Of a stretch of DNA of 37,616 bases, positions 187 through 36,010 are shown piece by piece. The notes under the pieces are model-generated. The model did no database searches. It was not told the DNA's origin and was given only the letters and a program-made list of their open reading frames with translations. The DNA comes from an uncultured Desulfobacteraceae bacterium. Its GTDB lineage: Bacteria > Desulfobacterota > Desulfobacteria > Desulfobacterales > Desulfatirhabdiaceae. Numbering within the stretch: the first letter of the stretch is position 1; each line of letters begins with the position of its first letter. The position numbers and the translations under genes are program-made. The stretch covers positions 1 through 37,616 of the forward strand of contig CAIMCT010000476.1 of NCBI GenBank assembly GCA_903839535.1, read 5' to 3'.

Positions 187-215
187 TTTTGGCTTGGTTT
201 CCCATGTATTCAACA

Positions 216-465
216 GCCATCCAACCAACCAGCCAACCATCCAGCCAGCCATCCATCCAGCCATCCATCCAGCCATCCAACCAGCCATCCATCCAACCAA
301 CCATCCAACCATCCAACCATCCAACCGGCCATCCAACCATCCAACCATCCAACCAACCATCCAACCATCCAACCATCCAACCGGCCATCCAACCATCCAA
401 CCATCCAACCGGCCATCCAACCATCCAACCGGCCATCCAACCGGCCATCCAGCCATCCAACCATC
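216..465. repeat. CCAT/CCAA/CCGG tetranucleotide minisatellite
   Basis: About 250 bp consist almost wholly of the tetranucleotides CCAT, CCAA, CCAG and CCGG in irregular higher-order units such as CCAACCAT and CCAACCGGCCAT. The plus strand is nearly devoid of G outside CCGG and CCAG, a strong strand asymmetry. All frames stay open through it and give low-complexity (Trp-Met-Val-Gly or Gln-Pro-Ser) translations, which are artefacts. Slippage expansion is the likely origin. Confidence 0.9.
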
Positions 466-7775: not shown

Positions 7776-8585
7776 TCAAACGTGAATATCTCTTTGCGGA
7801 ATGTCATTGTGCCGATATGGAATATGAACGTCTCTCATGAAAGATGGTACGAGTTGTCTTCTGAGAGATTCGTTCGCTATTTTCAGGTAATCGTTTTCAG
7901 CTTTGAGAGATTCGTTTTCAGCTTGTAGCATAAGAATAGTATTTTGCATACGTTCTATTTGAGTTGTCTGTTCGTTGACGGGTTGTGGATGTTCAGGCAT
8001 TGCAGCCTTTTGGTTGTTGATTGTGTCTTTCATGCGTTCTATTTGTACTGTTTGCTCGTTGATAGTCTGGATGTATTCGGCAATCATCTTCATTTTCTTT
8101 GCATTGCCTTTTTCGAGTTCTCTCTTTGATTCTGTGATGTTTGCTTCGGGTTTGGGTTTTGTTTTGGTTTTGGGTTTCCGAGTGTTGGCGATAATCTTTT
8201 CAATGCCATGATAACTGATATTTGGCGTATCTTCAATGGCCTGGATTACCTCTGTTAATTTACCTGCTCCACATTCCGTCTTGATACGGTCGATGAGTCC
8301 TGCTCCCCATTTGGCTGTTGCGACGGGATGAGCAATGAAGGCGAACCTCTCTTTGTTGAACATCGAATATCGCAAGCTGAACATGTTCATGATGTACTTT
8401 TCAAACGTTGCGTTTTCATAAACCTTGTTTTCTTTGAACCGGCTTGTCCTTTCGAGATAGTACAGTCGGAGGATGAAGTCTCTCCGGTGTAGAGATGATA
8501 TATCTTTTGCGTTCTTGCAGTCTTCTTCGATTGTGCCAATATTCACGCTGTCATAACGGCTCTTCAATTCTTCGAGTAAAATCAT
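7776..8585 (-). CDS. Coiled-coil protein adjacent to guide array, 269 aa
   Basis: The N-terminal 120 residues contain KYIMNMFSLRYSMFNKERFAFIAHP and GAGLIDRIKTECGAGKLTEVIQAIED, reminiscent of DUF3102-like phage proteins such as the one at 32533-33621. A basic linker (TRKPKTKTKPKP) follows, then a long heptad region (about 150-245) with a near-duplicated segment ('EQTVQIERMKDTI' and 'EQTTQIERMQNTI'). The tail is His/Arg-rich. ATG 8585 follows AAAGGAGACTTACC, which sits between the gene and the array end at 8611. A role in array function is possible only by position; it could simply be another operon gene. Confidence 0.75.
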   Translation of the reverse strand: MILLEELKSRYDSVNIGTIEEDCKNAKDISSLHRRDFILRLYYLERTSRFKENKVYENATFEKYIMNMFSLRYSMFNKERFAFIAHPVATAKWGAGLIDRIKTECGAGKLTEVIQAIEDTPNISYHGIEKIIANTRKPKTKTKPKPEANITESKRELEKGNAKKMKMIAEYIQTINEQTVQIERMKDTINNQKAAMPEHPQPVNEQTTQIERMQNTILMLQAENESLKAENDYLKIANESLRRQLVPSFMRDVHIPYRHNDIPQRDIHV

Positions 8586-8610
8586 GGTAAGTCTCCTTTT
8601 TTGGGTTGGT

Positions 8611-9889
8611 GGTTTTGCAAAAAACGCTTAGGTTTCAGGGTTCTTTTGGTCTTGCACCTATATTGTGGGTTTCAGCCATATCATGGTCTTGCAGCCTATC
8701 TCTGGGTTTCATCGGTATCCCGGCCTTGCATTTTGAATTTGGGTTTCAATCAATTTATGGTCTTGCACTATGAGATTGGGTTTCATTTTCTTTCCGGTCT
8801 TGCATTGTGGAAGTGGGTTTCAAACGGACATTGGTTTGCATTCAATCAATGGGTTTCAAATAGGCATTGGTCTTGCATTACGTCATCGGGTTTCACCTCA
8901 AGTTCGGTCTTGCATTTGGTTCTCGGTTTTCAATTAGCCTTTTGGTCTTGCATTGATCTTTTGGGTTTCAACGTGATTCTGGTCTTGCACCGTATCTACG
9001 GGTTTCAGATCACCATTAGTCTTGCATTCTGGCGATGGGTTTCACTCAGTGTCCGGTCTTGCATTTTTATAATGGGTTTCACTCAAGGGGCGGCCTTGCA
9101 TCTGAAGAATAGGTTTCAGTATTGGTGTGGTCTTGCACATGCCACATGGGTTTCAGAAATCTACTGGTCTTGCATTCAATCAATGGGTTTCAATAAAGCT
9201 GTGGTCTTGCATTCAATCAATGGGTTTCAAATCACGCATGGTCTTACATTTGGTTCTTAGTTTTCATAGCCTTTTGGGTCTTGCATACCATCTATGAGTT
9301 TCAAAGATACATTGGTCTTGCATTGGGAACATAGGTTTCAATACATCTGCGGCTTGCATTAGTGATTTGGGTTTCAAAAAAGGAGTGGCCTTGCACAGTT
9401 ACATTGGGTTTCAATGTTCACCTTGTCTTGCATCTGTACAATGGGTTTCAAATCCGTACTGGATTGCATTGTTTTGATGGGTTTCAATGGGATCATGGTC
9501 TTGCATGCAGTCGTTGGGTTTCAATGGCCAATTGGTCTTGCACTTGTCTTGTGGGTTTCAAACATATTACGGTCTTGCAATTTGATTATGGGTTTCATTA
9601 AGGGGCTGGTCTTGCATTGTTTTTGTGGGTTTCAATCCATCATTAGTCTTGCACTCAGACTATGGATTTCATGTTACTTCTGGTCTTGCACATTTTTTAT
9701 GGGTTTCAGCAAGAAATTGGTCTTGCAAGCTTCCAATAGGTTTCAAGTTTCCATTGGTCTTGCAATATCTAACTGGGTTTCAATAGGCCATTGGTCTTGC
9801 ACTTTCACAGCGGGTTTCAGCCTCTTACATGTCTTGCATTTCATTAATGGGTTTCATTGGTTTTATGGTCTTACACTCACAAATTTTCA
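8611..9889 (-). repeat. TIGR-like guide array: 34 two-spacer units, 37-nt period
   Basis: On the plus strand GGTCTTGCA (35 copies; 22 exact) alternates with GGGTTTCA (34 copies; 26 exact), separated on both sides by variable spacers of about 10 nt, period 37. Read on the minus strand, the sense of the upstream tas gene, a unit is TGAAACCC-N10-TGCAAGACC-N10. First-motif starts run 8611, 8648, 8685 and so on to 9867; three 8-nt copies (8833, 9351, 9461) and one 11-nt spacer shift the register by one base. Both ends degenerate (GGTTTTGCA at 8611; ATTTTCA near 9883-9889). Two non-identical short repeats with two spacers per unit fit TIGR arrays, which are processed to 36-nt guide RNAs. They do not fit CRISPR. 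Confidence 0.92.
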
Positions 9890-9912
9890 AAGAACAAATT
9901 GCACCGCTATCT

Positions 9913-10836
9913 TTAAACTTCGCTTACAGCCTTCACTTTCTTAACTGCTTTGCGCTTCGGTTTTGCTACTTCAATCAATTCTTCTTCAACTTCAATGATA
10001 GGTATATTCTTATCGTCTTTCCAGTAATAAGGCGGGATAATGCCGGTGTGTTCCAATATAACATCAGCATAAACGCCACGGGTACTTTTCCCGTCCATTT
10101 CCCGCGCAACATGCCAGAAGTGGGATAAGAACAGCTTGACGGCTCTCATCTTTGCCATTGAATGCCTATGCCCTTTTGACTTTTCGGGATAGACGGTTTC
10201 CAACTTCGATTTGACTTCAAGAAGATGGTTTTTGTATGGATGTTCCAGCGCTTGTTTGTTGAATGATTCACCGATTTGAAAAGCAACTTGCCGACCTTTT
10301 GCCGACCAGTTAGATGCTACACCGGCCTTACGTTTCGGCATTTTACCGTCAATGACATGCTCTCCAAGATAAGCCCACCATTTGGAAACGTTGCTGAAAT
10401 CTTTTGATGTGTCGATACGGGTCTTGAGTATGCCGTCGCCTTTGATACTTCTGTTGCAGGTTGGACAAAAGAACGTGTTACCTTCGCCGTTTTCTTTCTT
10501 TATAACGTCTGTACCGCAGTCTGAACAGATAGCCACAAACTTATAATAATACAACAGAACAAGATTGCCAGAAACGAATGAACCTATCCCAGGAACAGCC
10601 TTAAGCCATTCTGTGTAAATAGGCCAATATTCCAATTCTTTGATAATGTCACGGCTGAGGCGGTCTTTGATTGATTCTAAATCTTTTACGATTTTGTTGT
10701 GTTTGATAGATTCTTCTTGGTTGATGTGAGCAAGTCTATTCTTTGTCGCCACCAGAGTTTTGAGAATTGCGTCATAATTCTTGCAGTAATAATTCAGGCT
10801 TCTGATAACATCGTCATTCGCTTTGATACTTTCCAT
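9913..10836 (-). CDS. Tas-like (Nop/IS110 C-terminal-like) guide-RNA-binding protein without nuclease
   Basis: This 307-aa protein has an N-terminal helical coiled region (1-75), a helix-hairpin-helix-like AVPGIGSFVSGNLVLLY (80-96), a zinc ribbon C104-x2-C107...C124-x2-C127, WWAYLGEHV (153-161), GVASNWSAKGRQVAFQIGESF (172-192) and a C-terminal helical part. The order PGIG / YLG / GR / paired helices matches the IS110 Transposase_20 domain, which Tas proteins share with Nop proteins. There is no RuvC/DEDD half and no HNH motif, so it should bind RNA and DNA rather than cut. The tail is Lys-rich (AKPKRKAVKKVK). ATG 10836 follows AAAGGAAAACTCAA. Its stop is 24 bp from the array. Confidence 0.88.
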   Translation of the reverse strand: MESIKANDDVIRSLNYYCKNYDAILKTLVATKNRLAHINQEESIKHNKIVKDLESIKDRLSRDIIKELEYWPIYTEWLKAVPGIGSFVSGNLVLLYYYKFVAICSDCGTDVIKKENGEGNTFFCPTCNRSIKGDGILKTRIDTSKDFSNVSKWWAYLGEHVIDGKMPKRKAGVASNWSAKGRQVAFQIGESFNKQALEHPYKNHLLEVKSKLETVYPEKSKGHRHSMAKMRAVKLFLSHFWHVAREMDGKSTRGVYADVILEHTGIIPPYYWKDDKNIPIIEVEEELIEVAKPKRKAVKKVKAVSEV

Positions 10837-11215: not shown

Positions 11216-12022
11216 TCAAAACGTCATTTTCCTAAATTGCCGCATCATGTTCAGGTCTTCTGTCAGTTTGAATTTAAAGTGTTCGATAACGCTGGTATCA
11301 TACGCCTTTACTTCGCCATATTTACTATCCTCAATCTTTTTACAAACACGTCCGAGCGCCCTTGATAATTTGGATAACTGTTTGCCGATTGAGCTATAAA
11401 TATATGGTATTCTCAGATCGAATACTTCGCCAAGCCACGGTATTGCAGATACAGCTTTATATCTCTTGGAATCGCCAATTTGTTCTTTGAGTTTCTCGTT
11501 CTGTTTGGATACCACGGAAGCGGTCGCCATTGCGGTAGCAGTCTTTTTGTCGCTGATATATGCTTTGGTTTTGACAGCTTCATCACGCTGTTTGAGCGCC
11601 AGTTCTTTCATTTCCAATTCGTTTGCGTAAAGTCTCAGCGCTTCGGGTAAAGATTTTGGCATAAGAGAGTAAGAGCCTGTCTTGCGGATAGAAGGCAGAA
11701 CCTCTGAATGAACCCAGTATTTGAATTTCAAAGCGTTCGGTTTTCGGCTTTGAGCAATCAAATCATAAAGCCCGGCTTCTGTTAAGACTGTCATTTCTTG
11801 CATTCCACCTGCTGTTTGAAGGGGGTAGAAATTCACGACACCCTTTGTATCTATCCCAATTCTCTCATAATTCTCTTTGAGTGTTGCAATAGCATCTCTA
11901 TTATTTAAAATATCCAAAGCATCACAAATATCCTTGGCGACAAAATGCGGTTCACCATCAATCATTACCGTTCTGATATTGGTGTTCGGGTCAAAGCTGA
12001 AAACTGTCATTTCATTTGTCAT
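11216..12022 (-). CDS. Bro-N domain phage antirepressor
   Basis: Residues 1-110 form a Bro-N domain: VMIDGEPHFVAKDICDALDI, then LTEAGLYDLIAQSRKPNALKFKYWVHSEVLPSIRKTGSY, the diagnostic block. A coiled middle (EALRLYANELEMKELALKQRDEAV) and a C-terminal region (SAIPWLGEVFDL...KYGEVKAYDTSVIEHF) follow, as in Bro/KilAC-type antirepressors. Such proteins oppose repressors and promote lytic growth. ATG 12022 follows AAGGAAAGATAAA and lies directly after the ribbon-helix-helix gene. The first part is strongly recognised; the C-terminal domain is not. Confidence 0.93.
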   Translation of the reverse strand: MTNEMTVFSFDPNTNIRTVMIDGEPHFVAKDICDALDILNNRDAIATLKENYERIGIDTKGVVNFYPLQTAGGMQEMTVLTEAGLYDLIAQSRKPNALKFKYWVHSEVLPSIRKTGSYSLMPKSLPEALRLYANELEMKELALKQRDEAVKTKAYISDKKTATAMATASVVSKQNEKLKEQIGDSKRYKAVSAIPWLGEVFDLRIPYIYSSIGKQLSKLSRALGRVCKKIEDSKYGEVKAYDTSVIEHFKFKLTEDLNMMRQFRKMTF

Positions 12023-14328: not shown

Positions 14329-14982
14329 TTATTTTTTTCCTGTTCTGAGTTTAGCCAATTCCCAAATATAATCATATAAATGAAGCCCTTTGCTGGCAGC
14401 TATAATCTCACCGTCTTCAACACCTATCTCCTGTGCCATATACTCTTTCAGTATTTGGATAGCTCCCAAGTTCGCCGGAAAACCATTCCACAAGTCCCAT
14501 GACCGGAAATACACCATGAAATGGAGTTTGCCATATCTTATCCGTGTGTCTATTCCCCGAAGGCATGGAGGGTCGTTCAATAACAAAGCCTTCGGGTCGC
14601 CAACCGCCATGTATGCCTGATTTGTTCCATGTCCGTCATTTCGATACATGCGAATCACATCTGCAATTTGAGGCTCAAGGTATTCTCCGTAAGTGTAATC
14701 TTCATTTGGATGTTTTTCTGATGTCATCAGGTATGGCAAATAGCTTTCAATGTAGCCGTCTGCAACAGGGTTCGGGATACACAGAGATTCTGGAATCTCC
14801 GGTATCAACGGCCTCGCCCCAGGATGCTTGATGTGAACCGTGATATAATCAAACTCAAGCCGTTCCTGCCCCTGAAAACTTCCCCTGTCAATCTGGTAAC
14901 GGTAGCCTTTGTCTATAATTTCATAGACGCACTGGAACCATGCGTCCGGTATATCTCTTGCAGTAATACTCGTTATGTTCAT
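14329..14982 (-). CDS. Thymidylate synthase family protein
   Basis: The 217-aa product matches the C-terminal half of the ThyA fold. DPPC with the candidate nucleophile Cys140 is followed by LHFMVYFRSWDLWNGFPANLGAIQILKEYMA (155-183), equivalent to the 'Y-x-R-S-x-D-x-x-x-G-x-P-x-N' signature, and by GLHLYDY near the end for the GDxHIY motif. The usual PCH His is Leu here. It may make dTMP or a hypermodified base precursor (dUMP or dCMP hydroxymethylase relatives share this fold). ATG 14982 follows AAAGGTGAAAAA. The PAPS-reductase-like gene upstream and the MazG-like gene downstream support nucleotide metabolism. Confidence 0.8.
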   Translation of the reverse strand: MNITSITARDIPDAWFQCVYEIIDKGYRYQIDRGSFQGQERLEFDYITVHIKHPGARPLIPEIPESLCIPNPVADGYIESYLPYLMTSEKHPNEDYTYGEYLEPQIADVIRMYRNDGHGTNQAYMAVGDPKALLLNDPPCLRGIDTRIRYGKLHFMVYFRSWDLWNGFPANLGAIQILKEYMAQEIGVEDGEIIAASKGLHLYDYIWELAKLRTGKK

Positions 14983-14993
14983 TTTTTCACCTT

Positions 14994-15794
14994 TTAAAAT
15001 AGCCCCATTTGGCATACATCTTCCGGCATTGCAGTATTAGATAGCCACCAATCGAACCATTCGTTTGAGTTTTTATATATTTTTTTTGCATTGGTATCTC
15101 CCATTAAATCCCATCGTGATTTAGCAGCCCTTTGCCACCGCTTTTTCATGTACGGCCACCGCTGAAAATCAACCTGTCGATTTTGAGGGGACATCGGACA
15201 ACCTACACAGCCTATACGTTTTCTTCCCTCATCATACAGGCTGCAATATGGGATATTGTTATCTCTGATATATTTCCAGATTTCTTTATCTGTCCATGCC
15301 AATACCGGATTTATAACCCATGCCTTATTCTTTCCTTTTCCCCATTCCGTTACGGCTTGCCATGCTTTTGCTCGCTTCGAAGATTCAGCCGACCTGATAC
15401 CCATTACCTTGACTCTATTCTGACCGCCATTTTCTTTGTACAAACGGCAACACCACCTCGAAAACATAGATGGCAGCCCATTTTTCTCAACCATCTTCAT
15501 CATTGGAACCTTCGGCCTATGCCATATTACGTCTGGATGATGATGTTTTATGAATCGGGTCAATTCTGGCGGGTCAATCGTTGTCACTGAATAATTTGAC
15601 GTGAATTTAACGCCTGACTTGATAGCAATATCCTTCACGACAACACTATCCTTACCGCCTGAAAAACAGAGATAATATCCGTCTTGTGAGTATTCCAATG
15701 CAGATGATTCAAATTCTTGCAGCAGAAGTATCCCGTCTGCTATCTTTTGCTCATGGGTAATACCGACATGTTTAAGCGGTATTTGGTTCATCAT
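14994..15794 (-). CDS. PAPS-reductase/ATP-pyrophosphatase family protein
   Basis: SGGKDS at residues 45-50 is the PP-loop of the adenine nucleotide alpha hydrolase (PAPS reductase) family. RWCCRLYKE and RIGCVGCPM provide Cys pairs that could hold an Fe-S cluster, and WTDKEIWKYIRDNNIPYCSLYDEG is the typical family segment before the second pair. Relatives act in sulfate reduction, tRNA thiolation and, as DndC, phosphorothioate DNA modification; no other dnd gene is visible here. It overlaps the upstream NTPase gene by an ATGA. The substrate in this phage is unknown. Confidence 0.88.
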   Translation of the reverse strand: MMNQIPLKHVGITHEQKIADGILLLQEFESSALEYSQDGYYLCFSGGKDSVVVKDIAIKSGVKFTSNYSVTTIDPPELTRFIKHHHPDVIWHRPKVPMMKMVEKNGLPSMFSRWCCRLYKENGGQNRVKVMGIRSAESSKRAKAWQAVTEWGKGKNKAWVINPVLAWTDKEIWKYIRDNNIPYCSLYDEGRKRIGCVGCPMSPQNRQVDFQRWPYMKKRWQRAAKSRWDLMGDTNAKKIYKNSNEWFDWWLSNTAMPEDVCQMGLF

Positions 15795-16315
15795 TGCGGT
15801 TCTTTCTCGTCATAAATCAGTTTGATTCCAAGCTCACCATACAATGTCAGCATTGCCATTTCAACGTTTTGCCTCAACTCCTGTGTCTGATCCCGAAAGC
15901 CATCATCCACCAGGTAATCATGATCGTTGATTTTCCTGAAATGCACTTCTTTGTAAGCGGTTTTAACATACTCTTCAGCCATTGCCTTCATCGCATAAGC
16001 CAATCCATACATGCCAGCAGTAGCCGTGTAGGCGATTGTATCTATAACTGTTCTGTCTGATACGACTACCCCGTATCTGCGTACAGCGTTTAATTCCGCT
16101 TGCAGTTGAGCGCTGTATATCCACAATTGCGCTTCCCTTGTTGGAATAGCATTATTTTTACTAAATATCGGGTAAGGACACTGCCGAGCGACTTCGAGTA
16201 TGACACCAACTTCAGTTCTTTGACTGATCTTAAGCTGATATGCTTTTTCGTAGCAGGACGTTGATTTCCCTGTACCGTGTGCGCCACTGAAGGCTATGAT
16301 ATTTGCTTCTGTCAT
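15791..16315 (-). CDS. P-loop AAA/kinase-like NTPase, 174 aa
   Basis: IIAFSGAHGTGKSTSCYEKAYQL holds the Walker A motif (GAHGTGKS, about residues 10-17). VVVSDRTVIDTIAYTATAGM supplies a kinase-like 'DR' region and HDYLVDDGFRDQTQELRQNVE a lid-like segment. This fits AAA_28-type ATPases or nucleotide kinases found in phages. ATG 16315 follows AAGGAAGAAA; the ATG at 16351 lies in the preceding gene. Its overlap with the PAPS-like gene suggests the two work together, perhaps in base or nucleotide modification. Confidence 0.8.
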   Translation of the reverse strand: MTEANIIAFSGAHGTGKSTSCYEKAYQLKISQRTEVGVILEVARQCPYPIFSKNNAIPTREAQLWIYSAQLQAELNAVRRYGVVVSDRTVIDTIAYTATAGMYGLAYAMKAMAEEYVKTAYKEVHFRKINDHDYLVDDGFRDQTQELRQNVEMAMLTLYGELGIKLIYDEKEPQ

Positions 16316-16752
16316 TTTCTTCCTTTCACTCTGTAGCCGCAACTCCGGCAATATATTTTACCATCCCATCGTTTCCAACATTTGTGAGTTTTGCCATTCG
16401 GACAAAAAGAACCCATAACTGAACCACAATCAACACATTTTCCAACAGACAACATTCTAATTTTCCTAAAAACCCATATCTTACCTTTTGCATCTTTGCG
16501 TGTACCGACACAGCCACACGGAACATCCTCACAGTTATCGTGATACCAATACTCTCTGTCATTTAACACCTCAATTTCCATGCCGCATATCAAACAATAC
16601 TTAACTCCTTGCGTTACAGTATTGAGGCTTCCACAAATGCCACAGCCTTTCTGACGGTTGACGGGACAATCTGTCACACGTTGATCCTTGCGCGTTTTCC
16701 TGATATTGGCAGGTTCAATCAGTTTATCGCTTCGAGTTTTCTCTTTAGCCAT
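16312..16752 (-). CDS. Cys-rich zinc-ribbon protein, 146 aa
   Basis: It contains several zinc-ribbon pairs: CGICGSLNTVTQGVKYCLICG, CGCVG, CVDCGSVMG...CPNGKTHKC and YCRSCGYRVKGRK. The N-terminus is basic (MAKEKTRSDKLIEPANIRKTRKDQR). Multiple ribbons in a small phage protein suggest nucleic-acid or transcription-factor-like binding, but no family is recognised. The stop overlaps the NTPase start. Confidence 0.75.
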   Translation of the reverse strand: MAKEKTRSDKLIEPANIRKTRKDQRVTDCPVNRQKGCGICGSLNTVTQGVKYCLICGMEIEVLNDREYWYHDNCEDVPCGCVGTRKDAKGKIWVFRKIRMLSVGKCVDCGSVMGSFCPNGKTHKCWKRWDGKIYCRSCGYRVKGRK

Positions 16753-20261: not shown

Positions 20262-21956
20262 TTACCTATCGTTTTGTTTTTTACTGTCAATATATGTGTC
20301 GCTATATTTCTTTGTGCCTGCATCGAACCAAAGTTTAACTGATCCCTCTGTTCCAAACTCTCTATTTTTCTTGATCGAAAATAGAATATCTGGCGTATTT
20401 CCTCTTTGCAGACATGCCGTAGCATTTTTTATCGTTTCAGGATCGGCTCGCCATATCACAATGACATTATGTGCAAGGTTGGTGATATTACCTGATCCCG
20501 AAACGTCAGATTTCCCAGGCTTATCAGAATCAGATGCGCCTTTTCTTGGATGTGCCACAAGATGAATGTGGCATGAGAATTTTTTGGCAAATGAAACTAA
20601 ACTGGATATGAATTCACGCTGTGCTATCAGTTCGTCTCTGGCTGGCAAAGATATCCGCATTAAGCTATCAATGAAAAAATGTTTCACAGAATGTCTTCTT
20701 GCTGCATATTCAAACACGTCTAATAAATCTTTTGGTTTGATCTCTTCAAACGTGTTCACGATATAAATTTTATCGTCAAAATATTCGAGAGCTGCATCAA
20801 CGCGGTTTCTGTGAGGAAACGAATTTTCAAGATGTTGAATAACCGCCCATCTCAAATATCGTTTCGCTGGCATTTCCAAAGAAGCCACGCAACTTTTCTC
20901 TCCGATTGCAGCCAATCCTAAAATTACCTGATTTAAAATTGTTGACTTACCTGCTCCTGACCGTCCAGACCATACCGTCAACTCTTCGTACCGCCAGCCT
21001 TTCAAAATTTCATTCACCCCCGGCCACGGTGTTTGAACCCCGTTCAGGCTGTTTGGATTTTCAAACAATGAGTGTATTTCATCGGCAAAACTGGACGGAC
21101 TCGCCAAAATTGACGGCGCATAATCTTTTGCCTCGCTGAAATGCGTTTTAAGCGTTTTTTCATCAATACCCATACAAAGACACTCATTCACATCCTTGAA
21201 AGGCAAGGTGACGATGTGAGAGCGCCACGAACCTATTTTCTGAACCAATTCTATGACGGCTTTCTGCCCGGCTTCATCCTGGTCGAAACAGATGTTGATT
21301 TTTTTAAACAGATTTATGAAGTCCCATTCTCGTTCCACCCATTCAAAGTTTCCGGCTCCCATAGGTACGGACACTGCTTCTATCCCGAATTGAACGAGAG
21401 TCATGCAATCAATTTCGCCTTCACATATCGTGAGTTCATTCCCGTAAATGTTATCCCGATTGAAAAGCGTCGGCTCTGCGCATTCCTCGCTCCACATCTT
21501 TTTCTTGCCTTTCTCGTTTCGATCTATAGCCATATACTTGACGTTTGTTACAACACCGTCCCGATAATATGGGAATGCTATTGCTCCGTCTTTCGTTCGT
21601 ATTTTAAATGTTTCAATTGTTTCACTTGTCAGTTTCCTTGATTTTAAATACTCGACGGCCGGACTGCTCAATTTCTGGACTTTTGGCTGAGGCAGTTTGT
21701 ATATTTTTGGTTTTTGCACGAAGTTCAGCTTTGGAGCCGAACGTTCTGGAATATCTCCAAGACGTTTTTGCAATTCGTAAAAATTACCACGTTCCCCGCA
21801 GCCGTTTAGGTGCAGGCAGTTCCATGTTCCCTCTTTCAAATTGATTGCGAATTTTCTTTCATCATCAGCACAGAATGGGCAGTTCATTACAGCCTCATCT
21901 CCGCGCTTACGATATTCAAAACCTCGTTTGCCGATATATTCAGTTACGGAAATCAT
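20262..21956 (-). CDS. Phage primase-helicase (Toprim plus DnaB-like)
   Basis: The 564-aa protein begins with a zinc site (C26-P-F-C29, then C-x6-C around 47-54). A Toprim core follows, with LTICEGEIDCMTL (Glu motif) and NICFDQDEAGQKA (DxD motif), and then a RecA-like helicase: WSGRSGAGKSTILNQ (Walker A), KHFFIDSLMRI (Walker B) and a C-terminal arginine-finger region. This is the T7 gp4/Twinkle layout: it makes RNA primers and unwinds DNA at the fork. It sits between the G39P-like gene and the small winged-helix gene, completing a RepO-loader-primase/helicase module. The RBS is weak. Confidence 0.92.
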   Translation of the reverse strand: MISVTEYIGKRGFEYRKRGDEAVMNCPFCADDERKFAINLKEGTWNCLHLNGCGERGNFYELQKRLGDIPERSAPKLNFVQKPKIYKLPQPKVQKLSSPAVEYLKSRKLTSETIETFKIRTKDGAIAFPYYRDGVVTNVKYMAIDRNEKGKKKMWSEECAEPTLFNRDNIYGNELTICEGEIDCMTLVQFGIEAVSVPMGAGNFEWVEREWDFINLFKKINICFDQDEAGQKAVIELVQKIGSWRSHIVTLPFKDVNECLCMGIDEKTLKTHFSEAKDYAPSILASPSSFADEIHSLFENPNSLNGVQTPWPGVNEILKGWRYEELTVWSGRSGAGKSTILNQVILGLAAIGEKSCVASLEMPAKRYLRWAVIQHLENSFPHRNRVDAALEYFDDKIYIVNTFEEIKPKDLLDVFEYAARRHSVKHFFIDSLMRISLPARDELIAQREFISSLVSFAKKFSCHIHLVAHPRKGASDSDKPGKSDVSGSGNITNLAHNVIVIWRADPETIKNATACLQRGNTPDILFSIKKNREFGTEGSVKLWFDAGTKKYSDTYIDSKKQNDR

Positions 21957-22229: not shown

Positions 22230-23092
22230 TCGGTACACTCCTCTATCATGCGTTTTAACGTTGCCTGTTTGTTTGACTTAAATATCCCAATTTCATCTTC
22301 CCATCGCCGTTGATTCAACCATGTGGCAGGCATTGGAATGTACTGACCGTTATCTTTTTTCCAATTCGGGCTGGATTTGAATTTTTCGATTGCCGAACAG
22401 ATAGTTTCCACAAGTCCATTTTGTGGAGATATTTTAAGCCATGCTTTTTCAGCAGTGATTTTTGATTCGTGTTTTGGGTATGCCGACCAAAACAGGGAAA
22501 AGGATTCTTGAAGCTCCGCCGATAATTCAGATGTGCGTTTTTTCTTTATTGGATTATCGGCGGAAAGTTTATTTTTTGTGTTTTCCCCTTTAGGGGATAA
22601 AGGGGTAATGTCTTTTGTTAGTTGTCTTTTGTTATCTATTGGTAGGAGGATACCACGATTGACACTACCCTCAGTGTCAATCTTGCCACTACCCCCCAGT
22701 GTCATTTTTGCCACTACCCCAGTGTCATTTTCACCACTACCCCAAGTATCATAATCCTTATTAAATCGGTATGTTGATATTTTGGTGACAGGGGTAGTGT
22801 CATTTTCGCCACCCCCAGTGTCATTTTCACCACTACCCCATCTCTCGACACTGATCATATTCATTTTTTCAAGTTGATGAATCGCTCTGATAACATTTCG
22901 CTTACAGATACCAGTCGCCTTTGAAAATTGGCTTATTGAAATCGTATCCGTTAATTTATTCCAGCCGTAAGTTTTCCTAAAAATAACGTCTAATACTTGA
23001 CGTGCTGCGGCTGGTATTTTTGTCCTTCCAAGCGCATCGAAAGTCTCGTTTGCAATACTGACAAACCCATTTCCAGTTTGTGGAGAAGCCAT
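22226..23092 (-). CDS. RepO-like replication initiator
   Basis: Residues 1-90 match the phage replication protein O N-terminal winged-helix: NGFVSIANETFDAL, IPAAARQVLDVIFRKTYGWNK, ISISQFSKATGICKRNVIRAIHQLEKMNMI. Residues about 85-145 are a Gly-Ser-Glu-Asn-Asp-Thr repeat region encoded by iteron-like DNA. The C-terminal part (LFWSAYPKHESKITAEKAWLKI, ATWLNQRRWEDE) is the typical second domain of such initiators. It should bind the origin and recruit the loader and helicase encoded next. ATG 23092 follows AAGAGAAAATATAAT. Confidence 0.9.
   Translation of the reverse strand: MASPQTGNGFVSIANETFDALGRTKIPAAARQVLDVIFRKTYGWNKLTDTISISQFSKATGICKRNVIRAIHQLEKMNMISVERWGSGENDTGGGENDTTPVTKISTYRFNKDYDTWGSGENDTGVVAKMTLGGSGKIDTEGSVNRGILLPIDNKRQLTKDITPLSPKGENTKNKLSADNPIKKKRTSELSAELQESFSLFWSAYPKHESKITAEKAWLKISPQNGLVETICSAIEKFKSSPNWKKDNGQYIPMPATWLNQRRWEDEIGIFKSNKQATLKRMIEECTE
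22663..22840. repeat. Iteron-like repeats inside repO, candidate replication origin
   Basis: On the plus strand, copies of CACTACCCC-AGTGTCATTTT-type units of about 23-25 bp start near 22663, 22687, 22712 and 22735 (degenerate). After a 30-bp AT-rich gap, an inverted copy (GACAGGGGTAGTGTC, about 22787-22801) and a further direct copy (about 22807-22829, followed by CACTACCCC) appear. Adjacent copies are read in different protein frames (GENDT versus VAKMT), so the DNA and not the peptide is conserved. Lambda O carries its origin iterons in the same place. Confidence 0.7.
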
Positions 23093-27219: not shown

Positions 27220-28512
27220 TTAGAACCCTGATGAATCGGAGGATTCTGGTTGTCCTTGATGTTCAAGATCAAAGATATATTCTGAGTATTGGTCGCAACC
27301 GTCTAACTTTCCACAATCTACGCAATCCCTTGGAAACACGCCTTTATATTGTTCGTCTTTCTTGCAGACGATAGGAGCTTTCGGTTTTGGCTGATCAGTA
27401 TGTGTAGAATCAATACTGGTATCAGTTGAATCGTCCTTCCTGTTAAGAAACGGGCAGTGTTGATCAACATACAACTTATTCCACTTTGCTACAGCCTCAG
27501 CGTGGAGAGTTTCAGAACAGTTTTTCATCCGGTCAAGATTCTGGAAAACAAACGTTGAAAATCCAGCTTGTTTGAGATTGATGTATTCATCACGGAATGT
27601 AGTATGGACGGGTTCAGTAACCTTTTCCGTGGTGTCACGAATATGCTCTGGTTGTTGTTCAACCACAGGTTGTGGAAGTTTGGATTTCAGTTTGTCTGCC
27701 AGCGTGTCACTGGCTTTCGGACTAACGTCAATTGCATTGTTGGAGTCTGTATAATCTGGCGACCATGTGCCGTCTATCGCGTCTGTTACTGATAAAGATT
27801 GTTTTCCAGTATGGTCAGCGATATTGTCGAGTTCCAAAGCCGCTGCTAATTCAGGAGATTTGGGTAGATACTTGCACAACCTGCGTATCACAGTCTTGAT
27901 CCCCATAGCCTCTGCGTGTTCATCCCAAATAGAAACTTTACCAAATTTCTTACAGGCTTTGTAACCTTTTGAGCTATCCCTGATTTTCAGAATATCCGCA
28001 TTGCTCATAGCCTGAAATGTCTTTTTCCCGTCATTGAAAATACAAACTGCATAATATCCGACTATACTGCCTCTCATTTCATCAGATGCCGGGAATGAAC
28101 CATCCATTAACGGTTTATGCCTCAGGGTTCTATCCAACCCGAATATGATTTCAAATTCATCGTTCGCACGAACTGAGTGAGCATAAATATCAGAAACTTT
28201 GCCGGTATTCATAGCAAGTTTCATCAGCCCTATATACCCTGGTATCAATTGACATTCAGTTCCAAATGGAACCAAAGAAGCCTCACCGAGTAATCCGACT
28301 TCAAGCCCTAATTGCGAAGCCTGGATTACTGCTGCAAACACACTCTTCGGGTCACAAGATGCCAGTTTGGGGTTTTTCCTAAACTCCGTTAGCGCGATCC
28401 TGCACATACGATCTCCGTTCAAATGTTTGGGCAATGCTCTGACTATTTCAGACTTGAATTTTTCGAGCATATTGGGGAAGTCTCTTTTTAAAGCTGGTAC
28501 ATTTTCAGTCAT
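27220..28512 (-). CDS. recT: RecT-family single-strand annealing protein
   Basis: The first 250 residues match RecT: MTENVPALKRDFPNMLEKF, CRIALTEFRKNPKLASCDPKSVFAAVIQASQLGLEVG, GECQLIPGYIGLMKLA-type segment, VRANDEFEIIFG, KTVIRRLCKYLPKSPELAAALELD. The C-terminal 180 residues are less conserved and contain CKKDEQYKGVFPRDCVDCGKLDGC, a possible zinc knuckle. It anneals ssDNA made by the exonuclease encoded next (28516-29406), as in RecE/RecT or Red systems. At 430 aa it is longer than typical RecT because of this tail. ATG 28512 follows AAAGGATAAATT. Confidence 0.94.
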   Translation of the reverse strand: MTENVPALKRDFPNMLEKFKSEIVRALPKHLNGDRMCRIALTEFRKNPKLASCDPKSVFAAVIQASQLGLEVGLLGEASLVPFGTECQLIPGYIGLMKLAMNTGKVSDIYAHSVRANDEFEIIFGLDRTLRHKPLMDGSFPASDEMRGSIVGYYAVCIFNDGKKTFQAMSNADILKIRDSSKGYKACKKFGKVSIWDEHAEAMGIKTVIRRLCKYLPKSPELAAALELDNIADHTGKQSLSVTDAIDGTWSPDYTDSNNAIDVSPKASDTLADKLKSKLPQPVVEQQPEHIRDTTEKVTEPVHTTFRDEYINLKQAGFSTFVFQNLDRMKNCSETLHAEAVAKWNKLYVDQHCPFLNRKDDSTDTSIDSTHTDQPKPKAPIVCKKDEQYKGVFPRDCVDCGKLDGCDQYSEYIFDLEHQGQPESSDSSGF

Positions 28513-28515
28513 AAT

Positions 28516-29406
28516 TTATCCTTTCAAAATAAATCGGCGTGAGCCTGTTTTAGTTGTTAGATACTTCTTGTAAAGTTCGTAATTTTCAGCCTCGAATCTT
28601 GCTTTATCAAAAACAGTTGATGCTTTTGATTGCTTCCATGTCAATGCTGGTTTGCCGCCTATCAACAGCGTGTCGTTATCCTGTACAAAGTCCTTGATTC
28701 TGGATTCCAATTCTTCATGAGTTGCTTCAAGCTGTTTAATGTCCGCTTTTATGTAGCGCAAATTTTCCAATGCAACTTTCATCAGTTCATCAGCTTCAAC
28801 GGCTTTCTGAACCGACGTAGGCCATCTGGTGTTCCTGTCGCCGGGAGTTGTGCATTCGGGAGGGATGCCAGTCAAGACGTTGTGTTCCCAAAAAGCCACT
28901 AATAGCCTGGTGATAGTTTTAACCATGTCGTCATTCCTGTATAGTTCATAGACATCAAAATCTGATGCTCCGAACAGAACAGCTACATCACATCGCTCTA
29001 ACGCGGTCAATCCCATATAATGTTGACACTGCAACTCGTAATATTCTGGTACGCCAGCGTCCCATGCGTCCCGTGAGCGAGCCGTTTTAATCTCCAGCAC
29101 TCTATTATCGCCTTCGTGCTTGATTGATATGCCGTCGAGACTTCCTGTGATGAACGGATATTCAGGGTGAATAACTTCAATTCCAAGTTTGTCCGGGTCT
29201 ATATTGTATTCGACTCTCCGACCTGTCAGTTCGATATATTTGTTCCGCACAACAGGCTCTAACCTGTTTCCCCATTCCATAGCAGGATTGACTGGTACTG
29301 TAACCTGTCCGGTAATTTTGAGCCACTCGTCGAGCTGCGTACTCCATGGCGATATGCCGCAAATACCCGCTACGTTTGATCCGCCGATTCTCATTGTTTT
29401 TTCCAT
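28516..29406 (-). CDS. YqaJ-type (lambda exonuclease-like) recombinase exonuclease
   Basis: IGGSNVAGICGISPW and WGNRLEPVVRNKYIELTG (with E50), GSLDGIS (D91) and LEIKTA (E105-x-K107) form the PD-(D/E)XK active site of YqaJ/lambda exonuclease proteins. It would resect dsDNA 5' ends and load RecT. The C-terminal part has a helical pair (LENLRYIKADIKQLEATHEELESRIK). ATG 29406 follows AAAGGAGATGAT. The 3-bp gap to recT and shared strand make a recombination operon. Confidence 0.94.
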   Translation of the reverse strand: MEKTMRIGGSNVAGICGISPWSTQLDEWLKITGQVTVPVNPAMEWGNRLEPVVRNKYIELTGRRVEYNIDPDKLGIEVIHPEYPFITGSLDGISIKHEGDNRVLEIKTARSRDAWDAGVPEYYELQCQHYMGLTALERCDVAVLFGASDFDVYELYRNDDMVKTITRLLVAFWEHNVLTGIPPECTTPGDRNTRWPTSVQKAVEADELMKVALENLRYIKADIKQLEATHEELESRIKDFVQDNDTLLIGGKPALTWKQSKASTVFDKARFEAENYELYKKYLTTKTGSRRFILKG

Positions 29407-32114: not shown

Positions 32115-32543
32115 TCATACAGCCTCTTGTTCTGTCGAATTCGACGTAATGTTATCTATAGTTGCAGTATGATAATTCATCAATCTATAGACATCTTCAA
32201 TAGATTGATAAATCAGCTTTTTAATCGCTGAACGATTCAACGGTACTGATTCGCCATACTTAATCACTCGATCAATTTTGATTCTAATAACCATGAGAGT
32301 GTCAATGCCGTAGTCGTCTTTAATTTCATCAACAGTTCGACCAAAAACTTTTTTGATCTTTCTATTGATCTGGATTGCCAATCCTGCTTTGCTTGTTGCG
32401 CATTTACCATCTGGCCCGACATGTTCAGCGTGTTTTGTGATGGTTGCCATCAGCCTATTGTGGGCAACGAGAGAGCTTCTTCTGGCAATTTCCATTAAGT
32501 CAGTTTCTTGAGTTACTTCACATAACGCTAAATTACTCTTCAT
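32115..32543 (-). CDS. Hypothetical protein, 142 aa
   Basis: ATG 32543 follows TTGGAGGATACC; the ATG at 32555 overlaps that site. The product is mixed alpha/beta and basic (QINRKIKKVFGRTVDEIKDD; MVIRIKIDRVIKYGESVPLN). The N-terminal helix region (DLMEIARRSSLVAHNRLMAT) is well formed. No family is recognised. It overlaps the end of the DUF3102-like gene. Confidence 0.65.
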   Translation of the reverse strand: MKSNLALCEVTQETDLMEIARRSSLVAHNRLMATITKHAEHVGPDGKCATSKAGLAIQINRKIKKVFGRTVDEIKDDYGIDTLMVIRIKIDRVIKYGESVPLNRSAIKKLIYQSIEDVYRLMNYHTATIDNITSNSTEQEAV

Positions 32544-33621
32544 GGTATCCTCCAATATGTTTTGTGCCGGTCAAATAATTCTTAAATGCTGTCACTCCCT
32601 GTGCCATTTCGTTTGCCAAAACCATCAGCCCTTTGTTAGCAGATTCAGGTATATCGACATCGGAAAACAAATCTCCAAGAACAATGGATATACCCATAAG
32701 GTGCTGTCTGATTTCTTTTTCCGATTCCCGTATTGCCGATAAATCTCCAACTTTTCTTTCAAGTCTGTTCATCTCAGGTTGAAGCGCGTCAATCCTTGCT
32801 TGAACAGACGCAAGTTGTTTCTCTTTTGTGTCAAACTCATCCTGCATTTCCCGCATTCTAAGATTGACAGCCTGCGCTATTTTGCCGTCCTGTTCTTTTT
32901 TGAGAGTTTTCACTTTCTCTGATAATTTTTCATTTTCAGAGTTGATCTGTTCGAGTCTGGTTACGAGCGCGGTTTTGTCGCGAATTAACGTTTCTTTCGC
33001 AAGTGATAGGTCGGCGTAATCAGCAGGTATGGTGTCCTTCGACTCTGCTATTTTTTTGATTTCAAGATCATGATTGGCCTTCATCTGAGCCATTTCAGAT
33101 TTAAGTTGCATTTTTTCAACTGCGGGCTTGTTTTTCTCTGCTTCCAGGCGGGCTTCAAGGTCATCAATCTTTGCCTTGATATCGTCGGTGGGTATCTGGT
33201 CTTTCGCGGATGCGAGGTCTTTCTCAAGGGCGTCAATGCGCCGGTGGGCTTCTACGAGCTGCTTTGCTTCTTTAACTGTCAGTTTTTTTCCGTTCTCTGC
33301 TTTTTCGATTGCTTCGGTTCGGGCGGATTCGGGGGTGGATGGAGCAGCGAGCATGAACATGACTTCTGCTGGAAGATTTTCTACTACAGTTACTGTAGTA
33401 GAACCGAATTTCTCATAAACATTGAGTAATTGAGCACCGCGAGATGTTCCAAGTCCCAGGTCATTTTTTATCCATGCGGAATAATCCTGATACCCAAACG
33501 CATGATGGTACTCATGGCAAATCTGGCTTAGGTTGACATACTCGTTGGCAGTTCGCTTCAAGGAAGCCAATGCCATTTTTGTAAGGTATTCTTTCTTCTG
33601 GGTGATTATTTCGTCAGACAT
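32533..33621 (-). CDS. DUF3102-like protein with long coiled coil, 362 aa
   Basis: ATG 33621 follows CGGAGAGAATAT. The N-terminal region (SLKRTANEYVNLSQIC, AFGYQDYSAWIKNDLGLGTSRGAQLLNVYEKFG, NLPAEVMFMLAAPSTPE) fits DUF3102-type phage DNA-binding proteins. From about residue 110 to 330 it is a continuous coiled coil (ALEKDLASAK, DDLEARLEAEKNK, KETLIRDKTALVTRLEQ). It may be a ParB- or KfrA-like DNA-binding scaffold, or a growth regulator. A shorter relative may be the gene at 7776-8585. Confidence 0.8.
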   Translation of the reverse strand: MSDEIITQKKEYLTKMALASLKRTANEYVNLSQICHEYHHAFGYQDYSAWIKNDLGLGTSRGAQLLNVYEKFGSTTVTVVENLPAEVMFMLAAPSTPESARTEAIEKAENGKKLTVKEAKQLVEAHRRIDALEKDLASAKDQIPTDDIKAKIDDLEARLEAEKNKPAVEKMQLKSEMAQMKANHDLEIKKIAESKDTIPADYADLSLAKETLIRDKTALVTRLEQINSENEKLSEKVKTLKKEQDGKIAQAVNLRMREMQDEFDTKEKQLASVQARIDALQPEMNRLERKVGDLSAIRESEKEIRQHLMGISIVLGDLFSDVDIPESANKGLMVLANEMAQGVTAFKNYLTGTKHIGGYHEE

Positions 33622-33740
33622 ATATTCTCTCCGTTTCAATATCCCTTGTTCTTTGCGTACCCTGTCCGCCGACACCAATTACCGCCTCGCCGCTCAGCAG
33701 CTTCGATCATGAGGAAACACATCAACGTCACTTTGTCCGG

Positions 33741-35079: not shown

Positions 35080-35205
35080 GATTACCCTTTCAAGTTTTAC
35101 TTTAAATGAAAAATATACCAACAGATGGATATTGTCAACAATTATTTTATTATAAGTAAAATAATATATCTTGCTTTAAAATTCATTCAGGGTAAAAATA
35201 TCAAC
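35080..35205. promoter_or_regulatory. Divergent promoter/operator region of the lysogeny switch
   Basis: This 126-bp AT-rich gap between the Cro-like gene (minus) and the S24 repressor (plus) is where both promoters must lie. It contains the 25-bp palindrome at 35141-35165. The repressor start is placed at ATG 35206; ATG 35125 would make the repressor N-terminus run through the operator and lacks a ribosome binding site. Confidence 0.65.
35141..35165. promoter_or_regulatory. Perfect 9-bp-arm palindrome, candidate repressor operator
   Basis: ATTATTTTA and TAAAATAAT flank TTATAAG, a perfect inverted repeat midway between the divergent regulator genes. Its size and place fit the binding site of a dimeric HTH repressor. 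The centre also resembles a -10 element (TTATAA). Confidence 0.6.
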
Positions 35206-35982
35206 ATGGAAGAAAACCCGATAAAAAGAAGATTTCGATCTGCACTTATTCATTTTTGCGATAAGCAGTGGAAACGAAAACAAAAGGCACTGGCCTCTGC
35301 GTGTGGGGTTTCAGATGCAACCATCAGTGAAATAAAAAATGGCAACAATGCAGCCAGTCCCGAACTTCAGATGAAAATAGTTGATATTATGGGATGTTCG
35401 CTTGATGAATTTCTTGCAATCGGAGAATCTCTTTCTGGTTCAGCCGTTGAATGTACTTTGAGTAAGCCGTGCGTCACAGAACCGTATCATCACCCCATCA
35501 TCGTTCAAACGAATTCGGAACCGGAAACGGAATTCATGGCCGGTATATCTGACAGGTATCGAGCCATACCATTATATGAATCAGGTAAACTTGCAGCCGG
35601 TGTCCACGGCGAAGAGTTTGATCCACACGAAGTCCCTGATTCGATGGTGGTAGTTTATGAGCCGGAGCTGAAAGATTGCTCACATCACAACCTGGTTGCC
35701 ATGAAGGTAGGTGGATATTCGATGGAACCAACCATTATACAAGGATCAATTGTCGTGGTGGATTTATCGGACAAGGAAGAATCAAGAGGAAAGATTTTTG
35801 TAGTGAACACGCCAGACGCAAATATGAATATAGTATCCATCAAACGTGTGATACGATGGAAGCATGGTTTTATATTGGTGTCAGACAATAAGGATGTTGA
35901 TCCAGAACCAATAGATTTAGACTGGAACCGGCTTTGCGTGGGCAGGGTAGTTTGGATGTGGCGGGATATTCGGAATGTTTGA
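35206..35982 (+). CDS. CI/LexA-like repressor with S24 peptidase domain
   Basis: From ATG 35206 (258 aa), residues 22-75 form an HTH (KRKQKALASACGVSDATISE, IKNGNNAASPELQMKIVDIM). The S24 peptidase follows: cleavage site Ala131-Gly132 (KLAAGVHGEE), catalytic Ser172 in GGYSMEPTI and Lys213 in VSIKRVIRW. It should repress the lytic promoters and self-cleave when RecA is activated by DNA damage. It is divergent from the Cro-like gene. An AGGG about 13 nt upstream is only a weak RBS. Confidence 0.93.
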   Translation: MEENPIKRRFRSALIHFCDKQWKRKQKALASACGVSDATISEIKNGNNAASPELQMKIVDIMGCSLDEFLAIGESLSGSAVECTLSKPCVTEPYHHPIIVQTNSEPETEFMAGISDRYRAIPLYESGKLAAGVHGEEFDPHEVPDSMVVVYEPELKDCSHHNLVAMKVGGYSMEPTIIQGSIVVVDLSDKEESRGKIFVVNTPDANMNIVSIKRVIRWKHGFILVSDNKDVDPEPIDLDWNRLCVGRVVWMWRDIRNV

Positions 35983-36010
35983 AAAGGAGGATTATTAAAA
36001 GGAGGATTAT
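35982..36010 (+). repeat. Duplicated Shine-Dalgarno segment
   Basis: AAAAGGAGGATTAT occurs at 35982-35995 and again at 35997-36010, directly after the repressor stop. Only the second copy is positioned for ATG 36009. It is a small tandem duplication that doubles the ribosome binding site of the next gene. Confidence 0.75.

What the first reader, a model, noticed from the sequence alone, without database searches (positions are those of the whole stretch)
8611..9889. A 34-unit TIGR-type guide array with two alternating repeats and two 10-nt spacers per 37-nt unit
Seen directly: GGTCTTGCA (35 copies) and GGGTTTCA (34 copies) alternate for 1.28 kb with a 37-nt period; everything between them, 10 nt on each side, varies. 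That gives about 68 short spacers. CRISPR repeats are longer, identical and carry one spacer per unit, so this is not CRISPR. Established knowledge: TIGR-Tas systems of phages and parasitic bacteria use tandem interspaced guide RNA arrays processed to 36-nt RNAs with two spacers that recognise DNA in tandem. Inference: this phage encodes such a system. The 37-nt period and these particular repeats may represent a distinct variant.
Basis: partly seen in the sequence, partly recalled or inferred. Interest (0 to 1): 0.97.

Follow-up and report, generated by a model that had tools for sequence, protein, structure and literature searches.

The report
Phage TIGR-TasA guide-RNA array operon
A phage-like contig binned with a bacterium of the Desulfobacterales order carries a 34-unit TIGR guide-RNA array between a gene for a Tas protein (an RNA-guided DNA binder, here without a nuclease) and a conserved partner gene; the kind of system has been known since 2025, but this branch, marked by a zinc-ribbon insert and the partner, makes its natural role easier to test.

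Summary
The array is real and is a TIGR array. On the minus strand (9875->8610) 35 edge repeats (UGCAAGACCA) and 34 loop repeats (UGAAACCCA) alternate; 69 of 69 begin UG and 47 of 69 end CCA, the box D/box C signature of tigRNAs. Spacers are 9 nt (67 of 68), not 10: the tenth base is the end of box C. The 37-nt period comes from a 10-nt edge repeat. The gene just upstream (9913-10836, minus) is a Tas protein (TasR E 9e-26 by sequence, Z 21.9 by fold) without a nuclease domain (TasA), with a Cys4 zinc-ribbon insert found in 31 of 31 members of one clade and 0 of 20 other Tas proteins compared. The gene after the array (7776-8585) has homologues beside Tas in 26 of 29 distinct viral zinc-ribbon loci and 0 of 17 others; its model weakly resembles a ParB DNA-binding domain, so it is probably the reported TasParB. 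Two relatives with 89% identical tas-region DNA keep the repeats but share almost no spacers: turnover, not a decaying minisatellite. No convincing target was found. New member of a known kind; what nuclease-less TIGR-TasA does remains open.

The parts
8610..9875 (-). TIGR dual-repeat array: 35 edge repeats UGCAAGACCA, 34 loop repeats UGAAACCCA, 68 spacers (67 of 9 nt), 34 complete units; begins and ends with an edge repeat
9913..10836 (-). tasA: 307-aa Tas protein, Nop-type RNA-binding fold, no nuclease domain, Cys4 zinc-ribbon insert (C104, C107, C124, C127)
   Evidence: phmmer TasR E 9.2e-26 and TasH E 1.7e-7; profile 1.2e-47 and 2.4e-22; model versus TasR Z 21.9; the four Cys invariant in 12 of 12 rows
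7776..8585 (-). partner gene (P0002, 269 aa): helical N-terminal domain weakly like the ParB DNA-binding domain, plus C-terminal coiled coil; probable TasParB; start codon 24 nt after the last edge repeat
   Evidence: conserved beside zinc-ribbon TasA; model Z 7.0 and 5.6 to ParB
9876..9912 (-). gap between the tasA stop and the first full edge repeat, with one loop-like word out of spacing (by eye); no minus-strand terminator-like site here
11216..12022 (-). neighbour: BRO-N domain / phage anti-repressor gene on the same strand (context only)

Best explanation
This is a phage-borne TIGR-TasA locus. Inferred mechanism: the minus-strand operon tasA - array - partner is transcribed, and TasA binding lets a host RNase cut the pre-tigRNA inside the edge repeats into 36-37-nt tigRNAs (half edge, 9-nt spacer A, loop, 9-nt spacer B, half edge). 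A TasA dimer holds one tigRNA by the UG/CCA boxes and opens an 18-bp target, spacer A pairing with one strand and spacer B with the other. With no nuclease, TasA acts by binding and bending DNA, most likely blocking transcription or replication of competing mobile elements, aided by the ParB-like partner. Shown here: array anatomy, Tas homology and predicted fold, lack of a nuclease domain, zinc-ribbon insert, linkage to array and partner, spacer turnover in relatives. Inferred from published TasR/TasH work: processing, dimer, tandem targeting. Inferred with low confidence (about 0.45): that the effect is interference by binding rather than partition, gene regulation or help to an integrase. 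The confidence below is for the first sentence and the guide function, not for the final effect.
For: Array of 35 + 34 repeats, 69 of 69 starting UG, 67 of 68 spacers 9 nt, 0 expected by chance. The adjacent protein matches TasR at E 9.2e-26 and 1.2e-47 by profile; model Z 21.9 to TasR, 20.6 to TasH. 13 of 13 viral loci found by the two-row TasA alignment also have a dual-repeat array next to tas (some are near-copies of one another). Of 60 loci found by the 12-row alignment 56 have a 34-38-nt periodic array above shuffles, including 36 of 36 with close relatives, L050-L085. In 12 relatives 223 of 228 repeat-to-repeat gaps counted (5-14 nt window) are 9 nt. L014/L015: tas region 89% and partner region 87% identical, arrays between them not alignable end to end, 1 of 27 spacers matching at 8 of 9 and none at 9 of 9.
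Against: No RNA data. No convincing target: none at 0-1 mismatch in the window and fetched DNA; no full target in the own genome (18-nt control recovered, BLAST sensitivity only); no in-register excess among the matches printed for 193 relatives; none in 15 related viral records; 0 IMG/VR hits for the unit-26 target. No terminator-like site follows the array and promoter-like sites are at chance number, whereas published arrays typically end in a predicted terminator. What the zinc ribbon does is unknown.
Confidence: 0.93

Rival explanations
1. RNA-guided partition or silencing: the zinc-ribbon TasA-tigRNA marks chosen DNA sites and the ParB-like coiled-coil partner bridges or spreads from them, so the system is an RNA-programmed centromere or silencer rather than a simple roadblock.
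For: Partner in 26 of 29 distinct viral zinc-ribbon TasA loci and 0 of 17 viral loci without the insert (Fisher p 6.5e-10, not corrected for kinship). A search with the partner alone returned 16 loci; 13 were scanned and all 13 hold a Tas hit, the other three (L026, L031, L033) lie on the contigs of L013, L011 and L016, whose Tas was already known; 5 of the 16 contigs were new. Top two structural matches are ParB DNA-binding domains, Z 7.0 and 5.6. Faure et al. report tasParB operons with tasA.
Against: Z 7.0 is within the noise range stated by the tool; Foldseek found nothing at E <= 0.001; the model has no strands and so no ParB CTPase domain. No target in the phage itself at 0-1 mismatch in the expected geometry, which a self-partition role would need.
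Confidence: 0.25
2. Decaying minisatellite with no guide function.
For: Units 17/26 are near-duplicates and units 18/19/28 share spacer B, so duplication does occur.
Against: Repeats keep UG in 69 of 69 and 67 of 68 spacers are 9 nt while spacer letters vary; similar repeats stand beside Tas in distant phages; between L014 and L015 spacers turn over while repeats and flanks stay.
Confidence: 0.02
3. Box C/D-like guides acting on RNA (modification or binding) rather than on DNA.
For: Same Nop fold family: archaeal Nop5 1nt2 aligns at Z 6.8 over 153 residues, rmsd 5.2.
Against: Far closer to TasR/TasH (Z 18-22) and IS110-type recombinases (Z about 15) than to Nop5. TasR did not act on RNA substrates in print. 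No L7Ae- or fibrillarin-like hit among the 10 ORFs scanned with Pfam and the 30 entries scanned with PHROGs (some ORFs in both), which is not all ORFs.
Confidence: 0.05
4. IS110-family transposase with a decayed bridge RNA.
For: PHROG 4285 labels residues 148-268 'transposase'; IS621 and ISCro4 align at Z about 15.
Against: IS621 residues before 124 have no counterpart in the model: no DEDD catalytic domain. A bridge RNA is one RNA unit, not a 34-unit array.
Confidence: 0.01

Closest known systems
TIGR-TasA with operonic tasParB (Faure et al. [quoted passage not shown]
   Same: Dual-repeat array, nuclease-less Nop protein, partner gene in the same operon with the array between or beside the two genes, 10-nt repeats.
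   Different: Identity of P0002 with TasParB rests on a weak fold match and gene order; their figure S14 and table S1 could not be read. The words 'zinc' and '37-nt' do not occur in the main text. 34 units here, most often 5-15 there.
TIGR-TasR (Thermoproteota archaeon, PDB 9mty)
   Same: Best sequence and fold match; repeats start UG and end CCA; 9-nt spacers.
   Different: No RuvC domain here; TasR lacks the ~50-residue Cys4 insert (query residues 96-145 fall opposite about 5 TasR residues); 37- instead of 36-nt period.
TIGR-TasH (Salicola phage CGphi29, L006; PDB 21kl and others)
   Same: Phage-borne, Nop fold, dual-repeat array with 36-nt period.
   Different: HNH nuclease there, none here; the two L006 repeats have other consensus letters; no zinc-ribbon insert.
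IS110-family bridge-RNA recombinases (IS621)
   Same: Shared Nop-type RNA-binding domain (Z about 15).
   Different: No catalytic DEDD domain; array instead of one bridge RNA.
CRISPR arrays
   Same: Repeat-spacer array; spacers turn over while repeats stay (seen here in relatives).
   Different: Two different short repeats and two 9-nt spacers per unit. No Cas gene stands out: the only CRISPR-labelled hits were a weak PHROG 1706 match (E 4.9e-5) of the RecE-like exonuclease at 28516-29406 and one weak Cpf1-domain Pfam match among partner homologues.

Membership tests
TIGR-Tas | Array of two distinct alternating 8-12-nt repeats with ~9-nt spacers | tested here: met
   Edge 9-10 nt (35), loop 9 nt (34), 67 of 68 spacers 9 nt; definition
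TIGR-Tas | Both repeats start with UG (box D) and end with CCA (box C) | tested here: met
   UG 69 of 69; CCA 47 of 69, CCA or CCG 58 of 69; rule
[quoted passage not shown]
   Starts and ends with edge repeats, but of full length; no minus-strand terminator-like site after the array. The paper says 'typically'
TIGR-Tas | Adjacent Nop-domain Tas protein | tested here: met
   P0001: TasR E 9.2e-26, profile E 1.2e-47, Z 21.9 over 198 residues at 2.8 A
TIGR-TasA | Nop domain without RuvC or HNH nuclease | tested here: met
   Model starts with the coiled-coil helix at residue 8; only TasR residues 112-322 find a counterpart; no nuclease Pfam hit
TIGR-Tas | Array processed to ~36-nt tigRNAs bound by Tas | not testable with these tools
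   Needs RNA
TIGR-Tas | tigRNA-guided tandem-spacer DNA binding | not testable with these tools
   Needs protein and RNA; target searches were negative
TasParB (partner of TasA) | ParB-like protein in an operon with tasA | tested here: inconclusive
   Position beside tas conserved; fold match to ParB DNA-binding domain only Z 7.0 and 5.6; no ParB among the 25 of 31 Pfam families shown for its 9 members
IS110 transposase | N-terminal DEDD catalytic domain | tested here: not met
   IS621 alignment starts at its residue 124, model residue 7
CRISPR-Cas | One repeat type of about 25-36 nt with single spacers of similar length (published contrast) | tested here: not met
   Two alternating 9-10-nt repeats, 9-nt spacers

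The most novel reading that the evidence does not exclude
The zinc-ribbon TasA clade is a distinct functional branch of TIGR: an RNA-programmed DNA-binding platform that recruits a dedicated ParB-like coiled-coil partner to 18-bp sites, silencing, bridging or partitioning DNA without cutting it, with spacers that are swapped half-unit by half-unit.
Probability: 0.25. Interest if true: 0.88.

Novelty: new member of a known kind. Interest (0 to 1): 0.6.

Why it matters
How nuclease-less TIGR-TasA works, what its spacers aim at and how arrays grow are stated open questions. This work gives a clade with two tight markers (zinc ribbon 31 of 31 inside, 0 of 20 outside; partner 26 of 29 against 0 of 17 among viral loci), a relative pair in which spacers turned over while repeats and flanks stayed, and arrays in which a single half-spacer recurs with different partners. 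These make the role of the partner and the mode of spacer change directly testable. If the partner is the reported TasParB, the link between TIGR and ParB-like proteins is a property of one zinc-ribbon branch.

Tried and rejected
Targets. Geometry A + reverse-complement(B), gap 0-2, was derived by me from the published 8-nt 3' overhangs and cut rule (one text words the cut as 3' of the paired nucleotide, the other as 5', and only the latter gives an 8-nt 3' overhang). Window plus fetched loci, 168 pairs and 209 kb: 0 hits at 0-1 mismatch, 3 at 2 mismatches, against 8 at 2 mismatches for one mispaired control; the opposite orientation rc(A)+B gave one 1-mismatch hit, in the window itself (unit 7 at 4984), and 10 at 2 mismatches. 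I took that single hit as chance (my estimate was about 0.2 expected per orientation); it was not followed up. Enlarged run, 232 pairs and 266 kb: 1 exact and 4 one-mismatch hits in the expected geometry; two of the five, the exact one included, lie in L046, which had been fetched because it matched, the other three are one AT-rich pair of L011; rc(A)+B gave 3 one-mismatch hits (the window hit again, one in L041, fetched because it matched the joined query, and one from a parsing artefact of L009); three mispaired controls gave 2, 1 and 1 hits at 0-1 mismatch. Own genome: the 34 joined targets gave 13 matches, none a full target, while the 18-nt control came back; four of the loci rescanned at up to 2 mismatches: none. 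193 relatives (own genome included): at most 3 candidates a genome were scored and the printed list is cut; in it I count 22 rows of 100% identity over at least 18 bases, one of them in register (unit 26, in G030), against about 1.2 expected. That site lies in a 361-aa ORF near a PGK-like gene (named by eye), and the base that unit 17 would need is absent: taken as chance. 15 related viral records: best 16 of 18 of an AT-rich target. IMG/VR exact scan of the unit-26 target: 0. An early own-genome try without control was uninformative.

Other dead ends. P0001 alone found no IMG/VR relative and no plasmid match; the phages collection gave 4 records, 3 distinct phages; P0002 gave none there. The phage's DnaB gave no IMG/VR relatives. 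Rfam: nothing at gathering threshold. PADLOC: nothing for P0001, two weak hits for P0002 (E 0.0015 and 0.0069) over its C-terminal half, taken as coiled-coil matches. A zinc-ribbon pattern that also demanded G[DE]G was too strict (18 of 49 scored clusters) and was replaced by the alignment-based count; the simple pattern flagged L091 and L104, which have no insert. Rows under 150 aa (L080, L086, L087) were dropped before the tree and the 26-of-29 count; two of them (L080, L087) have the partner, L086 does not. The tree has long branches outside the clade and a midpoint root; the clade's own support is 100/99. Near-copies remain in the counts but were merged at 95% identity. The array flag tests 34-38-nt periodicity against mononucleotide shuffles, not repeat grammar or position; in L056 the best period lies away from tas (the array itself is seen in L028, the same contig). 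A-B similarity within units is at chance. Nop5 appears only at Z 6.8, below the tool's noise line.

Full report
Observation. Read on the minus strand, the array runs from 9875 to 8610. It holds 35 copies of an edge repeat, consensus UGCAAGACCA, and 34 of a loop repeat, consensus UGAAACCCA. 69 of 69 begin UG; 47 of 69 end CCA and 58 of 69 end CCA or CCG. Of 68 spacers, 67 are exactly 9 nt and one is 10. Three edges are a 9-nt form (units 12, 15, 29), so three units are 36 nt, and unit 26 is 38 nt. A two-repeat probe hits 31 times against 0 in 100 shuffles.

Tas gene. The gene directly upstream on the same strand (9913-10836, 307 aa) matches TasR (PDB 9mty) at E 9.2e-26 and TasH (21kl) at E 1.7e-7; with a 14-row profile 1.2e-47 and 2.4e-22. 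An AlphaFold model from 12 rows (pLDDT 78.5, pTM 0.78) aligns with TasR at Z 21.9 (198 residues, 2.8 A), TasH at Z 20.6, IS621 and ISCro4 at about Z 15, and Nop5 at Z 6.8. There is no N-terminal nuclease domain, so it is a TasA. PHROG's label 'transposase' for residues 148-268 reflects the IS110-type C-terminal half.

Zinc ribbon. Between the GIG motif and the C-terminal RNA-binding part lies a ~50-residue insert with four cysteines (C104, C107, C124, C127). TasR has only about 5 residues there. Among 51 representative Tas proteins (merged at 95% identity, over 150 aa), 31 have the insert with at least four Cys (41-70 residues) and 20 do not (4-11 residues, no Cys); the 31 form one group with support 100/99. 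That it binds zinc is inferred from the Cys pattern. The words zinc and 37-nt do not occur in the main text of the TIGR-Tas paper; its supplement was not read.

Relatives and arrays. The two-row TasA alignment found 13 IMG/VR loci, 13 of 13 with a dual-repeat array next to tas: UGCGAGCCA, UGCAAGCCA or UGUGAACCA edges and mostly UGAAACCCA loops, 36 nt; L012/L013 (identical over 9.4 kb) have 37 nt, the edge UGCAAGACCA and a different loop, roughly UNAAAAYCA. The 12-row alignment found 60 loci: 56 of 60 have a 34-38-nt periodic array above shuffles, including 36 of 36 in L050-L085, the close relatives. The 37-nt period recurs in L054/L055 (the contigs of L012/L013) and L080 (the contig of L023). 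In 12 relatives 223 of 228 repeat-to-repeat gaps are 9 nt. One relative, L004 (identical to L021), lies in a MAG titled Desulfobacterales bacterium; the window's genome is in the same order. Few cellular genomes carry it: 2 of 193 relatives, 2 of 395 in the phylum, 1 of 7 in the genus, the window's own included in each.

Partner. The gene after the array (7776-8585, P0002) recurs beside tas in 8 of 14 other loci compared (aligned). A search with the partner alone returned 16 loci: 11 on contigs already in hand and 5 new (L023, L028, L029, L036, L038). 13 of the 16 were scanned and 13 of 13 hold a Tas hit; the other three (L026, L031, L033) lie on the contigs of L013, L011 and L016, whose Tas was known. 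L023 has only a Tas fragment at the contig end plus a second fragment on the other strand. Array units are listed for L023, L028, L036 and L038 and the sequence printed for L029. Over non-redundant viral Tas loci, the partner is in 26 of 29 with the zinc ribbon (absent in L051, cut by the contig end, and in L065 and L079) and 0 of 17 without (Fisher p 6.5e-10, which ignores kinship); it is also absent in L004. Its model (pLDDT 80.8, pTM 0.49) has a helical N-terminal domain and long C-terminal helices. Foldseek finds nothing at E <= 0.001, but the second-look aligner ranks ParB DNA-binding domains first and second (6s6h Z 7.0, 116 residues at 6.5 A; 6t1f Z 5.6), within its stated noise range. 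Faure et al. describe a ParB-like tasParB in operons with tasA; P0002 is probably that protein, without a visible CTPase domain.

Array evolution. L014 and L015 share the tas region at 89% DNA identity and the partner region at 87%, yet their arrays cannot be aligned end to end (two short pieces of 71-79% align), and only 1 of 27 L014 spacers matches an L015 spacer at 8 of 9, none at 9. In the window, units 17 and 26 share spacer B and nearly A, and units 18, 19 and 28 share spacer B with different A; L017 and L018 each show one case of the same half-unit sharing. So spacers change quickly while repeats stay, and halves can change alone. Whether by new acquisition, recombination or mutation is not known.

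Targets. No convincing target by the routes tried (details and the few near-hits in Tried and rejected).

Reading. Of the TIGR paper (PMC12045711) I read the sections on arrays, processing, targeting, nuclease activity, structure, stem-loop arrays, discussion, figure legends, genomic vicinity and tasParB. It shows that Tas-bound arrays give 36-nt RNAs and that TasR and TasH read both strands of DNA with the two spacers. By homology this locus should do the same without cutting. What the bound complex achieves is open; blocking of competitors is the default reading, partition or silencing with the partner the bolder one. Literature: of the papers listed by searches only Faure et al. and one review (PMC12385481) have the TIGR names in the title; of all papers other than Faure I saw only listings and abstract starts.

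Noticed in passing
window 214-465: Imperfect tandem array of CCATCCAACC-type units (8/12/20/28-nt periods) near the contig start.
   Followed up: no
window 36358-37395, 35125-35982, 27220-29406, 20262-21956: Phage-integrase-family gene, CI-like repressor, RecT and RecE-like pair and a Toprim + DnaB-type primase-helicase: a temperate-phage-like contig. No capsid or terminase hit among the ORFs scanned (not all were), one weak tape-measure hit (E 1.3e-5) at 32533-33678.
   Followed up: partly
window 14329-16351: Neighbouring genes with thymidylate synthase-like, PAPS reductase-like and thymidylate kinase-like hits: possible nucleotide or base-modification cassette.
   Followed up: no
L023:1-354 (+) and L023:1442-1894 (-): C-terminal and N-terminal Tas fragments on opposite strands of one short viral contig, around the partner gene: rearranged or mis-assembled.
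   Followed up: no
L028:2264-4764: Loop repeat is mostly UUAAACACA while the edge is UGCGAGCCA: boxes of loop and edge differ, unlike the published covariation of the two repeats.
   Followed up: no
L036:3739-5904: Gene order partner before tas, with array units on both sides.
   Followed up: partly
window 4984: One-mismatch match of unit 7 in the reverse geometry rc(A)+B inside the phage itself; about chance level.
   Followed up: no
window 22659-22752 and 35980-36016: Short tandem repeats of 23 and 15 nt.
   Followed up: no
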